Assembly: GCA_009268125.1 (NCBI GenBank)
Contig: WBOU01000026.1
Span: 1-45,491 of the forward strand
Reading direction: 5' to 3'
Length of the DNA: 45,491 bases
Origin: Chloroflexia bacterium SDU3-3
Lineage (GTDB): Bacteria > Chloroflexota > Chloroflexia > Chloroflexales > Roseiflexaceae
Of this stretch, positions 38,118 through 40,785 are shown piece by piece; the stretch's first letter is position 1, and each line of letters begins with the position of its first letter. Both the position numbers and the translations under genes were made by a program. The notes beneath the pieces were generated by a model. It ran no database searches. It was not told the origin of the DNA and saw only the letters and a program-made list of their open reading frames with translations.

Positions 38118-39080
38118 CTAGCGCGCGCAGCCCACCAGCGGCTCGGGGTCGATGTTCACCCCGGCGGGCGAGCGCACCTCGTAGTGCAGGTGCGGGCCGG
38201 TGGAGTAGCCGGTGGTGCCCGCCGTGCCCAGCCGCTGGCCCGCCGACACCACCTGCCCGTCGGCAATCTCCAGGGTGTTCAGGTGGCCGTAGGCGGTGGC
38301 GTAGCCGCTCTCGGCGTTGGTGATGATGATAAAGTTGCCGCCTGGCCAGCTGTTGGGGAAGACCTGCGCGGTGCCGCCCAGCGTCGTCACCACCGGCGAG
38401 CCAAAGGTCGCATCCGAGTTATCGTAGCCGTTGTGGTCGGAGTCGATCGCCAGATCGACCGCGCCCATGGTCTCCGCTGGAACATGGGTGCCTACACCAA
38501 ACGGCTGCGTGATCACCACCGACATACCGGCGGGCGCGATCAGCGGGCAGCCGTGCGGGCCATCGGCCTGAAGCGAAAACGCGGGCGTGGCGGTGGGCGC
38601 GGGCGTGGCGCTGGGCGGGATGGTGGGCGCGATCTCCACGGGCGTGGGAGTGGGCGTGGCGCTAGGGGCCGCCGTGGGCGTGGCGCTGGGCAGCGCCGCA
38701 AAGGCATCTGCGCCCTGCCCGGGCTGGGCGCTCTGGGCGGTGCTCAGCGCGGCCATCACCTGCTGGATAATCGCGCCGCCCGCCTCGGCCTGGCCCTGCA
38801 GCATGGGCGAGAGCGCCAGCGCGCTAGCCACAGTGGCGATGCCAAGCGCCGCCAGCTGCTGCGGGGGGTTCCGGGGCGCGGGGCGGGCCTGCGGGGCGCT
38901 GCCCGCCAGCAGCAGCGGCTCCAGATCGAAGATCGCAGCCAGCAGCACGCGGCTGGTCTCATCCAGCGCCCGCATGCCATACTCGATCTCGGCCAGAGTG
39001 CGGGCAGATATGCCGCTGCGCAGGGCAAGATCCGAAAACGTCATGCCGTGGCTACGACGGAGTGCGCGAATGGTGGGCAC
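38118..39080 (-). CDS. XRE-HTH / M23-type membrane protein with a lost zinc ligand
   Basis: 320 residues from a GTG at 39080, which has AAAGGA seven nt upstream and starts at the conserved PTIRALRRSHGMTFSDLAL helix-turn-helix (XRE family, with SARTLAEIEYG). A hydrophobic helix (about 78-95) follows, then a Thr/Pro linker and a lysostaphin-like M23 domain at the C-terminus (about 190-320). The M23 motif Hx(G)xD reads MGAVDLA, so the first zinc His is absent, while YGHLN and GPHLHYEVR are kept. It is therefore probably a non-catalytic LytM-type regulator, or a divergent enzyme. The HTH on the cytoplasmic side could sense or bind DNA or protein. An in-frame ATG at 39128 is an alternative start. 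Confidence 0.82.
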   Translation of the reverse strand: MPTIRALRRSHGMTFSDLALRSGISARTLAEIEYGMRALDETSRVLLAAIFDLEPLLLAGSAPQARPAPRNPPQQLAALGIATVASALALSPMLQGQAEAGGAIIQQVMAALSTAQSAQPGQGADAFAALPSATPTAAPSATPTPTPVEIAPTIPPSATPAPTATPAFSLQADGPHGCPLIAPAGMSVVITQPFGVGTHVPAETMGAVDLAIDSDHNGYDNSDATFGSPVVTTLGGTAQVFPNSWPGGNFIIITNAESGYATAYGHLNTLEIADGQVVSAGQRLGTAGTTGYSTGPHLHYEVRSPAGVNIDPEPLVGCAR

Positions 39081-39118
39081 GTCTTTATCCTTTTTCCAGA
39101 GAGCATCCTGCGATGGTG

Positions 39119-39147
39119 AGCATAGCACGGCGGGGTGCGATTGAACA
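39119..39147 (-). promoter_or_regulatory. Possible promoter of the XRE-M23 gene
   Basis: Minus strand: TGTTCA (39142-39147), 17-bp spacer, TATGCT (39119-39124) with TGC extension. It ends 32 bp from the left edge of the TnpB element. Confidence 0.45.
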
Positions 39148-39178
39148 TGACAGCATGTTTACGGATGCTTGCCTTTAG

Positions 39179-39217
39179 GCGTTTCATCCCACCGCTGAAG
39201 CTGGTGGGATGAAACGC
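39179..39217 (+). repeat. Left-end palindrome of the TnpB element
   Basis: Fifteen-bp perfect inverted repeat (39179-39193 with 39203-39217), core CATCCCACC/GGTGGGATG. A second small palindrome, CCGCTTGAGCGG, follows at 39219-39230. Such subterminal hairpins are the TnpA recognition structures of this family. Confidence 0.7.
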
Positions 39218-39260
39218 TCCGCTTGAGCGGCTTTCGCCCACGGTCGGTATAGCACATATG

Positions 39261-39289
39261 TTGCATTTTACGTAGCGGTGTGCTATGCT
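39261..39289 (+). promoter_or_regulatory. Promoter of tnpB
   Basis: TTGCAT (39261-39266), 17-bp spacer, TATGCT (39284-39289) with TGC extension. The predicted start is at or next to the A of the ATG (39296), so the mRNA may be leaderless. Confidence 0.65.
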
Positions 39290-39295
39290 TAACAT

Positions 39296-40405
39296 ATGCA
39301 GAAAACCTACAAATACCGCATCTATCTCACCAAAGGTCAGCGCCGATTGCTTGAGCAGCAATTGGAACTGTGCCGTTGGGTCTATAACGAGACGCTTGCC
39401 GAACGCACACGTGCGTATGAAGAACGCGGCGAGCGGTTGCGGTTGTACGATACCCAGGCCCTGCTTCCGATGTGGAAGAGGGCAAAACCTGCATTGAAAG
39501 GCGTTCACTCACAAGTCTTGCAAAACGTCTCGGTGCGGGTTGATTTGGCGTATCACGCCTTCTTCCAACGCGTCAAACGTGGCGCTGAACAAGCAGGCTT
39601 TCCCCGGTTCAAAGGCAAAGGACGATACGATTCGATCACCTACCCGCAGTACGGGAACGGGGTGCGGCTGGAGGGCAATCGGTTGCTCCTCTCGAAAGTC
39701 GGCGCGGTCCACGTTGTTTTGCATCGTCCCGTTGAGGGAACGCCCAAAACCGTGACGATACGCCGTTCTCGGAGTGGCAAGTGGTTTGTCTCGTTTTCCT
39801 GCGAGCTGGAAACGCATGAACAACGCCCCACGGGCGAGGTGGTGGGCGTGGATATGGGGCTGGCATCGTTCGCGACGTTCTCCGATGGGGAGCAGATCGC
39901 TAACCCGCGTTTCTACCGCCGCGATGAAGTAGACCTGGGGCGCGTCCAGCGGCGGAAGGACGCCGCCAAGCAAGCAGCAAACTGGGCAGAGCACGCCAAA
40001 CAAACGGTGATCCTTGCCAAGATCCACGAGCGCATTGCCAACCGACGCAGCAACTTTGCGCATCAGGCAAGCCGCAGGCTCGTCAATCGCTTTCAGGTCA
40101 TCGTGTTTGAAGCCCTTGCCCCGCAAGCCATGGGCACGAGCAGCGGGATGCGCAAGAGTATTATGGACGTGGCGTGGTCGCAGTTTATCGCGATGACCGT
40201 CAGCAAAGCGGCAGAAGCTGGCAGGCGGGTCATTCTGGTGGACCCCCGCAATACGTCCAAGCGGTGTTCCCGCTGCGGCACATTGGTCGATAAGACCTTG
40301 TCTGACCGTGTGCATAGGTGCCCAACGTGTGGGCTGGTGATGGATCGTGATATGAATGCGGCGATCAACATCCTCCAACGCGGCCTCGCTACCCTTCGTA
40401 CCTGA
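39296..40405 (+). CDS. tnpB: TnpB, RNA-guided RuvC nuclease of an IS605-type element
   Basis: TnpB is the ancestor of Cas12: it uses an RNA from the right end of its element to cut DNA and so keeps the element in the genome. The 369-residue product is full length. RuvC residues are all present: Asp186 (GVDMGLA), Glu272 (IVFEALAP) and Asp352 (DRDMNAA). The zinc finger has CxxC at 324/327 and CxxC at 342/345. The N-terminal YKYRIYLTKGQ and the helix WVYNETLAERT are standard. It looks active. Codon use is less GC-rich than the host, consistent with transfer. Confidence 0.95.
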   Translation: MQKTYKYRIYLTKGQRRLLEQQLELCRWVYNETLAERTRAYEERGERLRLYDTQALLPMWKRAKPALKGVHSQVLQNVSVRVDLAYHAFFQRVKRGAEQAGFPRFKGKGRYDSITYPQYGNGVRLEGNRLLLSKVGAVHVVLHRPVEGTPKTVTIRRSRSGKWFVSFSCELETHEQRPTGEVVGVDMGLASFATFSDGEQIANPRFYRRDEVDLGRVQRRKDAAKQAANWAEHAKQTVILAKIHERIANRRSNFAHQASRRLVNRFQVIVFEALAPQAMGTSSGMRKSIMDVAWSQFIAMTVSKAAEAGRRVILVDPRNTSKRCSRCGTLVDKTLSDRVHRCPTCGLVMDRDMNAAINILQRGLATLRT

Positions 40406-40466
40406 CATGGTGGAGTGGGGCGGCACTCCCTTGAAGCCCACGCGCGTTAGCCGTGGGAGCCGTCAC
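40406..40466 (+). ncRNA. Putative 3' end of the TnpB guide (omega) RNA
   Basis: Directly after the tnpB stop come two hairpins: GGAGTG/CACTCC (40412-40429) and CCCACG/CGTGGG (40437-40457), then GAGCCGTCAC. In related elements the omega RNA covers the tnpB 3' end and this right end, and the bases just beyond serve as guide, so the guide here would begin about 40467. The 5' end of the RNA was not located. Confidence 0.45.
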
Positions 40467-40642
40467 AACCGCTGTTTGCTTAAAACAGTCCGACCGTATC
40501 ACGTAGGTTTTTATGGTAAAAAGAGATAGCTATCTGCTGTCTATTCTTGATAGCAACTATTAATTGTGCAACATGTGCATTTTTCGCTCATAGCAGCAGA
40601 AAAAGGCTATTGCGCCACGAGGGAGCAAGACATCCATTTCGG
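40467..40642. other. Gap between the TnpB element and repeat locus E
   Basis: No gene. A CTGTTT/AAACAG hairpin (about 40472-40487) with a later T-run at 40507-40511 is the only structure; the stretch is AT-rich compared with the window. Confidence 0.5.
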
Positions 40643-40757
40643 CCCTTCGTGTCCTCGTGCCCTCGTGGTATTCGTTCCCGCTTCTCGCCCTCGTGTCTTC
40701 GTGTCTTCGTGGTATTCGTTCCCGTTTGTTCCTTGGTGTCTTGGAGTCTTGGTGGTA
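40643..40757. repeat. Dispersed repeat locus E
   Basis: Two copies of module 1 (CCCTTCGTGTCCTCGTGCCC and a close variant, each ending CGTGGTATTCGTTCCC at 40679 and 40723) followed by module 2 (TTGGTGTCTTGGAGTCTTGG, 40733-40752). Orientation matches locus C. Confidence 0.85.
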
Positions 40758-40785
40758 AGAAGTCCTGAAATGCCCCAAGATGTCC

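What the first reader, a model, noticed from the sequence alone, without database searches (positions are those of the whole stretch)
39179..40466. Intact TnpB-only element with a likely guide-RNA right end
TnpB retains Asp186, Glu272, Asp352 and the zinc finger, and the right end folds into two hairpins ending in a GTCAC-like tail. No TnpA is present, yet nothing in the nuclease is worn, which points to recent arrival or selection on the nuclease. The guide would be read from about 40467 onward.
Basis: partly seen in the sequence, partly recalled or inferred. Interest (0 to 1): 0.55.

Follow-up and report, generated by a model that had tools for sequence, protein, structure and literature searches.

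The report
TnpB-only jumping element, guide-RNA end
This is an ordinary bacterial jumping gene that carries an RNA-guided DNA-cutting enzyme (TnpB) and, at its right end, the matching guide-RNA scaffold; the enzyme looks intact, but the sequence that a borrowed transposase would need at the left end appears to be altered, so this copy may now be stuck in place.

Summary
An intact TnpB (369 aa; D186, E272, D352, four zinc cysteines) is followed by a right end with two hairpins ending in GTCAC. Three other ~96% identical copies in different flanks of the same genome fix the ends: element 39163-40466 (1304 bp), inserted 3' of TTTAC. The right end is a genuine omega-RNA terminus: over 27 right ends 97% of pair cells are kept with 41 compensatory cells, plus a loop-tail pseudoknot that covaries between subfamilies. 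Purifying selection on tnpB is supported; recent arrival is not (dS 0.07-0.11 between copies; one of the four has a stop codon). TnpA is absent from the element, but the genome has two; one heads a related TnpA+TnpB element with the same right end. New: relatives obey an IS608-like target code (4th base of the flanking TTAN pairs with the 4th base of the left guide in 40 of 43 scorable elements), and the window copy breaks it: TCAT stands where relatives with TTAC have AAAG, inside a perfected palindrome. It is probably not excisable. Relatives also hold TnpB-less elements with the same RNA end.

The parts
39158..39162 (+). TTTAC: target site retained in the left flank (core TTAC 39159-39162 = left cleavage site CL); predicted TAM for the guide
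   Evidence: Precedes all four copies (TTTAC x3, CTTAC x1) and the more distant copy L017 (TTTAC)
39163..40466 (+). whole element, 1304 bp (right boundary uncertain by one base)
   Evidence: Sequence shared by four copies in four different flanks starts after TTAC and stops at GTCAC/GTCACA (blastn ends)
39179..39217 (.). perfect palindrome of the left end (15-nt arms, 9-nt loop); its loop is reverse-complemented relative to L002, L003, L004 and L017
   Evidence: arms; comparison; 39163-39245 folded as single-stranded DNA has z = -5.0
39184..39187 (+). position of the left guide tetranucleotide GL: TCAT here, AAAG expected for TTAC
   Evidence: IS608 rule from PMC5934647
39219..39230 (.). small second left-end hairpin CCGC-TTGA-GCGG
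   Evidence: read from sequence; same in the other three copies
39296..40405 (+). tnpB, 369 aa plus stop
40412..40429 (+). omega-RNA hairpin 1 (GGAGTG / CACTCC, loop GGGCGG)
   Evidence: changes on both sides at 3 of 6 pairs
40419..40423 (+). pseudoknot 5' strand GGCGG, pairs with 40460-40464
   Evidence: covaries between subfamilies (GACTA:TAGTC, GGCTA:TAGTC); invariant within the close set
40433..40436 (+). right guide tetranucleotide GR, GAAG
   Evidence: analogue of IS608 GR GAAT
40437..40457 (+). omega-RNA hairpin 2 = right-end hairpin (CCCACG / CGTGGG)
40460..40464 (+). pseudoknot 3' strand CCGTC
40463..40466 (+). right cleavage site CR, TCAC; end of scaffold
40467..40482 (+). predicted guide (first 16 nt of the right flank)
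   Evidence: inference from the end and from ISDra2 / SisTnpB

Best explanation
A non-autonomous IS200/IS605 element that carries only tnpB. Shown by sequence: its ends, the conserved nuclease residues, the two-hairpin-plus-pseudoknot RNA terminus and purifying selection on tnpB. Inferred: the tnpB transcript (or a shorter RNA) is processed to an omega-RNA that ends at 40466 plus about 16 nt of flank; TnpB with this RNA cuts the TTAC-flanked empty site and so restores or homes the element by recombination. Movement needed a Y1 transposase TnpA in trans, such as the one of the related TnpA+TnpB element at G000:C1. At some time the left palindrome of this copy was perfected, most simply by template switching or conversion; that put TCAT where the left guide should be (AAAG in relatives, AACG in two sister copies) and flipped the loop. 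By the IS608 rule TnpA should no longer pair it with TTAC, so the copy is probably fixed in place while nuclease and guide stay usable.
For: Family. Catalytic and zinc residues. Ends from four copies. RNA end: 27 right ends (24 distinct), 97.1% of 408 pair cells kept, 41 cells changed on both sides against a shuffle mean of 10.8 and at most 5 in slid controls, covariation score 0 of 500 shuffles as high; pseudoknot covariation between subfamilies. TnpA in the genome: two, one directly upstream of a TnpB 68% identical to the query whose right end is GAAG-hairpin-GCCGTCAC. Target code: TTAC/AAAG 31, TTAT/AAAA 6, TTAG/AAAC 3; 40 of 43 TTAN elements with a scorable hairpin have a Watson-Crick pair at position 4, 0 of 100,000 permutations as high. 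GL is TCAT in the window copy and L002, AACG in L003 and L004, TCGT in L017 (listed as L006, the same element). Selection.
Against: No expression, cleavage or excision data. The single-sequence fold is not unusual. In the pair counts the measure 'further pair types' is no better than shuffles (221 of 500) and 'pairs with a change on both sides' only moderately so (12 of 500); sequences are related, so shuffles overstate significance. No sigma-70-like promoter in 39100-40600 (0 found, 0.6 expected). The 5' part of the omega-RNA was not resolved. All five window-type copies in this genome (window, L002, L003, L004, L017) deviate from AAAG, so either all are disabled or this lineage tolerates another guide; the GL position in the 21-nt-spacer type rests on four relatives (L057, L058, L062, L179), two of which share one orthologous insertion (L058, L062). 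An orthologous empty site was not found.
Confidence: 0.8

Rival explanations
1. A dead relic: TnpB and the RNA end look intact only because decay has been slow; nothing is used.
For: One of the four copies (L003) has a TAG at codon 30; the left guide is off-code in all five window-type copies.
Against: Changes private to single copies are depleted of nonsynonymous ones (window copy alone 6:7, p = 0.019; L003 5:4, p = 0.14); three of the four ORFs are open; the last 64 nt of the element differ by one base in L003 and not at all in the other copies.
Confidence: 0.25
2. TnpB has been taken over by the host as a regulator or defence nuclease (as recalled for TldR proteins), not a transposon helper.
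For: Purifying selection and a left end that seems immobile.
Against: RuvC triad intact; four dispersed copies with unrelated flanks and so unrelated guides; the first 18 nt of the guide have no exact match in the viral contig collection.
Confidence: 0.07
3. The element is still mobile: GL is not the tetranucleotide next to the hairpin in this type, or TnpA tolerates TCAT/AACG.
For: The copies must once have inserted next to TTAC; variants are shared pairwise (TCAT in window and L002, AACG in L003 and L004) and could be functional.
Against: 40 of 43 relatives with a scorable left end keep the pairing, and the TCAT and TCGT forms are just what copying the other palindrome arm gives (read).
Confidence: 0.25

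Closest known systems
ISDra2 (Deinococcus radiodurans) TnpB and its reRNA/omega-RNA
   Same: TnpB family (phmmer 9.6e-53 over residues 3-364), RuvC triad, CCCC zinc finger, RNA from the right end, pseudoknot, guide from the right flank (PMC8612924 passages; PMC10097598 sections 7 and 8 and passages)
   Different: ISDra2 has its own tnpA and target/TAM TTGAT; here no tnpA and TTTAC
IS608 (Helicobacter pylori)
   Same: Target TTAC; left guide AAAG in relatives; right pair GAAG/TCAC corresponds to GAAT/TCAA with the fourth base changed on both sides (PMC5934647 passages)
   Different: IS608 carries tnpA; the window copy has TCAT in place of AAAG
IS605-type TnpB7 of Sulfolobus islandicus
   Same: guide begins right after a conserved UUCAC; TAM TTTAA, little preference at position -1 (PMC11043419 passages)
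   Different: archaeal, different tail and TAM
PATE-like elements of IS200/IS605 (Halanaerobium, Haloquadratum)
   Same: ends-only derivatives; tnpB copies apparently shuffled by recombination (PMC7290912 passages; PMC3119063 seen in a listing only)
   Different: several RNA-only relatives here keep a conserved, structured ~230-nt RNA

Membership tests
TnpB, IS200/IS605 type | OrfB_IS605 plus Cas12f1-like TNB domains over curated cut-offs | tested here: met
   PF07282, PF01385, PF12323 all above gathering score; NF040570 312 bits, cut-off 100
TnpB, IS200/IS605 type | RuvC D-E-D triad and CXXC...CXXC zinc finger | tested here: met
   D186, E272, D352; C324, C327, C342, C345, aligned to ISDra2
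TnpB, IS200/IS605 type | NCBIfam IS200_TnpB (NF038281, an exception-level model) over its own cut-off | tested here: not met
   282 bits against 425; the subfamily model NF040570 is met, so filed as TnpB, not as this exception model
omega-RNA / reRNA | conserved structured RNA at the right end with pseudoknot, ending at the element boundary | tested here: met
   transcription not tested
omega-RNA / reRNA | RNA bound by TnpB, with flank-derived guide | not testable with these tools
   needs RNA sequencing or co-purification
IS200/IS605 element | insertion 3' of a tetra/pentanucleotide without target duplication; subterminal hairpins | tested here: met
   four copies after (T/C)TTAC, ends TTAC and TCAC share only AC; no empty site to compare
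IS200/IS605 element, mobile | left guide able to pair with the left cleavage site | tested here: not met
   TCAT at 39184-39187 where relatives with TTAC have AAAG
autonomous IS200/IS605 element | own Y1 transposase gene | tested here: not met
   PF01797 in this genome only at C1:263293-263646 and C4:181851-182204

The most novel reading that the evidence does not exclude
In this clade TnpB guide RNAs have become mobile elements of their own: TnpB-less, TnpA-less elements with the same right end keep the omega-RNA terminus (hairpin 1, pseudoknot, hairpin 2), eight of them behind a dedicated, conserved ~170-nt 5' RNA domain. They would use TnpA and TnpB of elements such as the window's in trans, as double parasites that carry only guides, while the TnpB elements themselves switch target base (TTAC, TTAT, TTAG) by compensatory change of the left guide.
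Probability: 0.35. Interest if true: 0.7.

Novelty: new member of a known kind. Interest (0 to 1): 0.4.

Why it matters
The element itself is ordinary. Its value is as a test case: a TnpB and RNA end kept by selection on a copy whose left end looks broken separates nuclease function from current mobility. Its relatives form a natural series in which related TnpBs (67-85% identical to one another for the window, L089, L023, L028, L013 and L027) sit at TTAC, TTAT or TTAG with matching left guides, so whether TnpB's TAM follows TnpA's target choice, or is indifferent to that base, can be tested directly. The RNA-only relatives ask whether omega-RNAs spread on their own.

Tried and rejected
Empty-site comparison: the left flank DNA (38118-39162) finds no orthologous locus in 60 genomes, only weak gene-level or repeat matches apart from the window itself. 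The flanking genes lie on different contigs, or far apart on one contig, in the relatives where both have strong matches (G002, G004, G009, G012, G028, G034); most are draft assemblies. The ends therefore rest on copies within the genome.

Folding energy as evidence for the RNA: rejected, z = +0.76. Rfam: in the window only a tRNA elsewhere; in 20 other loci only one CRISPR repeat; nine low-threshold hits in a search of seven loci, all far below gathering scores. Plasmids: no match for the element or for an RNA-only element. Viral contigs: no encoded relative, no exact 18-nt guide match. Genome contigs: six relatives, best segment identity 68%.

IscB as user of the RNA-only elements: IscB-type genes exist in 4 of 8 genomes tested, but in the part of the output I could see (it was cut) blastn of ten RNA bodies showed only a 27-nt hairpin match to one of these loci, L137; not pursued. 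Compensatory changes in the left palindrome (L017) as proof of selection: rejected, because copying one arm onto the other gives the same result. A single tree for the four copies: rejected; 2:2 sites outside the palindrome split 8/8/6 (the first split has 13 sites, five of them adjacent palindrome positions). A motif check of the 5' body was mis-specified and is not used; that part rests on reading. Structure prediction was not used.

Full report
What is there. Window 39296-40405 encodes a 369-aa TnpB. It scores above the curated cut-offs of three Pfam domains and of NCBIfam NF040570, guided_TnpB (312 bits, 5.4e-93); the narrower NF038281 model is not met (282 of 425 bits). ISDra2 TnpB is among the nearest solved structures (9.6e-53). 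D186, E272 and D352 and cysteines 324, 327, 342 and 345 are present and correspond to D191, E278, D361 and the CCCC zinc finger of ISDra2 (PMC10097598, passages).

Ends. The genome holds three further copies at about 96% identity. Aligned with the window copy, all four are shared from GGATGCTTG, directly after CTTAC or TTTAC, to GCCGTCAC, and their flanks are unrelated. The element is therefore 39163-40466 (1304 bp). The next base is A in all four, so the right boundary is uncertain by one base. The insertion site resembles that of IS608, which inserts 3' of TTAC (PMC5934647, passages). An orthologous empty site could not be found.

RNA end. A single-sequence fold is unremarkable (143 nt as RNA, z = +0.76; 64 nt as DNA shows both hairpins, z = -1.0). 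Comparison is decisive. From the motif hits, 27 right ends were listed. A first count used 24 of them, leaving out two duplicates of the window end and L081, whose hairpin 1 is broken: 98.5% of 391 cells paired. With all 27 (24 distinct) it is 97.1% of 408 cells; 41 cells have both sides changed against 10.8 in shuffles and at most 5 in slid controls; the covariation score is reached by 0 of 500 shuffles, but 'further pair types' by 221 of 500. The loop of hairpin 1 (GGCGG) can pair with CCGTC just before the end. This pair never varies in that set, but in more distant elements it reads GACTA:TAGTC (L017, L033) or GGCTA:TAGTC (L036); L007/L011 and L161/L176 have one mismatch each, and in several rows the script picked another hairpin or a broken one (for instance L005, L058, L084, L163, L178). 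A pseudoknot is also part of the ISDra2 omega-RNA (PMC10097598, abstract passage; sections 7 and 8 read). The guide should begin at 40467, as in SisTnpB where it follows the conserved UUCAC (PMC11043419, passages).

TnpA. None lies in the element. The genome has two Y1 transposases. One (C1:263293-263646) lies directly upstream of a TnpB 68% identical in protein to the window's, and that element ends in the same GAAG-hairpin-GCCGTCAC. Supply in trans is therefore possible.

Selection and age. Pairwise dS between the four copies is 0.07-0.11 and dN/dS 0.23-0.36; against relatives dN/dS is 0.11-0.23 with dS above 1. Changes private to one copy are 22 nonsynonymous and 27 synonymous (76% nonsynonymous expected by sites; p = 2.5e-6; window copy alone 6:7, p = 0.019; L003 5:4, p = 0.14; sites shared by two copies not counted). 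Two of the window's six are steps of one serine codon, so the count is conservative. L003 has a TAG at codon 30. This supports selection on the nuclease and speaks against a very recent arrival. Sites split 2:2 among the copies support the three possible pairings about equally outside the palindrome (8, 8 and 6), which suggests exchange between copies; such shuffling has been proposed for tnpB in Halanaerobium (PMC7290912, passages).

The left end. In IS608 the cleavage site TTAC pairs with a guide AAAG at the foot of the left hairpin. Searching 60 genomes (this one and 59 relatives) for the left-end motif TAGSSCGTAAANCCC found 19 with matches; the reversed control pattern gave at most one match per strand in any genome. 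Of 68 distinct stretches in hand, 46 were followed by a scorable hairpin; 43 of these had TTAN at the expected distance and 40 of the 43 had a Watson-Crick match between the fourth bases (TTAC/AAAG 31, TTAT/AAAA 6, TTAG/AAAC 3; mismatches TTAT/AAAG, TTAA/AAAG, TTAC/AAAA; permutation maximum 36 in 100,000). The 22 stretches without a scorable hairpin were dropped, among them further TTAG/AAAC, TTAT/AAAA and TTAC/AAAG cases, one TTAT/AAAG mismatch and several chance hits. Without this filter, and allowing 12- to 14-nt spacers, the count is 54 of 58 with 10 others. Related elements share ancestry, so these are not independent events. The window-type left end has a longer spacer (21 nt); its relatives L057, L058, L062 and L179 have TTAC/AAAG. 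The window copy and L002 have TCAT, L003 and L004 AACG, and L017 TCGT. In the window copy and L017 the left arm is the exact complement of the right arm over 15 nt, in L002 over 14, and in the window copy the loop is also reversed. The simplest reading is that template switching or conversion perfected the palindrome and erased the guide. Whether this abolishes excision is inference.

Relatives without TnpB. The right-end model R1 was run on 15 genomes: 13 of the 21 that had matches, and two without. Of 43 copies at 57 bits or more, 20 have TnpB sequence directly upstream. For the remaining 23, a recheck by tblastn (one of the 23, at a contig edge, had no locus to check) gives 16 with no TnpB sequence (at least 360 nt upstream searched), 2 with a remnant or an interrupted TnpB (G037:C56, G028:C125), 1 with a gap of unknown bases and, by eye, a tnpB remnant (G055:C35:13544), and 4 at a contig edge. 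In the window's genome all five strong copies have TnpB. At most 150 candidates per genome were scored, so counts are lower bounds. Ten loci share the 3' part of a ~230-nt RNA; by reading, eight have its 5' part too (not L152, L161). Seven of the eight were aligned (L058, with a deleted hairpin 1, left out): 62 predicted pairs, 12 with at least one double change (no shuffled control). L058 and L062 share their left flank, one insertion inherited by two genomes. Hairpin 1 and the pseudoknot are not known to be needed by TnpA, so their retention hints at use by a TnpB in trans; but the copies were found by similarity to this very end, and some have lost parts of it (L058, L081, L094, L163). G004 has such a copy but no TnpB match at E 1e-5. 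I found no description of TnpB-dependent RNA-only elements in the searches, which cover open-licence papers only; stand-alone omega-RNAs for IscB are recalled (Altae-Tran 2021), not seen here.

Verdict. A new member of a known kind: a TnpB-only IS200/IS605 element with a well-supported omega-RNA end, a selected nuclease, a TTAC target and a probably disabled left end.

Noticed in passing
L057, L058, L062, L085, L152, L160, L161, L169, L170, L172 (related genomes): TnpB-less elements with the window's omega-RNA end; eight of the ten share a ~230-nt structured RNA. No Rfam family for the ones tested (L057, L058, L062, L085).
   Followed up: partly
L059, L063, L064, L067, L069, L095; also the flank of L011 (G000:C30): A second kind of element with a different RNA body; its last ~100 nt (L067, L069) match a stretch near the 3' side of TnpB in L060, L061 and L068.
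   Followed up: no
left ends of related elements: Fourth base of the flanking target TTAN covaries with the fourth base of the left guide AAAN: natural retargeting TTAC, TTAT, TTAG. By eye, L059 and L063 read TCAC/GAAG, which suggests a second coding position.
   Followed up: partly
L094 (G031:C95), L163 (G056:C119): About 50-bp elements in which the left-end hairpin runs straight into the right end GCCGTCAC.
   Followed up: no
G000:C25:15107-16421 (L003): Sister copy with TAG at codon 30 of tnpB.
   Followed up: yes
G000:C1:260817-263820: TnpA+TnpB element with TTAG/AAAC next to a second TnpB of another subfamily on the opposite strand.
   Followed up: partly
G000:C6:118084-118611 and C31:8368-8901 (L139, L140): Two RRXRR (IscB-like) ORFs, each beside a divergent ORF that by eye looks like a two-HTH XRE-type regulator.
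   Followed up: no
40644-40770: Three degenerate 40-nt repeats (CCTTCGTGTCCTCGTG...) at 43-44-nt spacing in the right flank.
   Followed up: no
right flanks of copies in G000: The base after GTCAC is A in L001-L004, L017 and L011 but T in L013; over distinct right ends in hand it varies (A 21, T 18, G 14, C 5).
   Followed up: no
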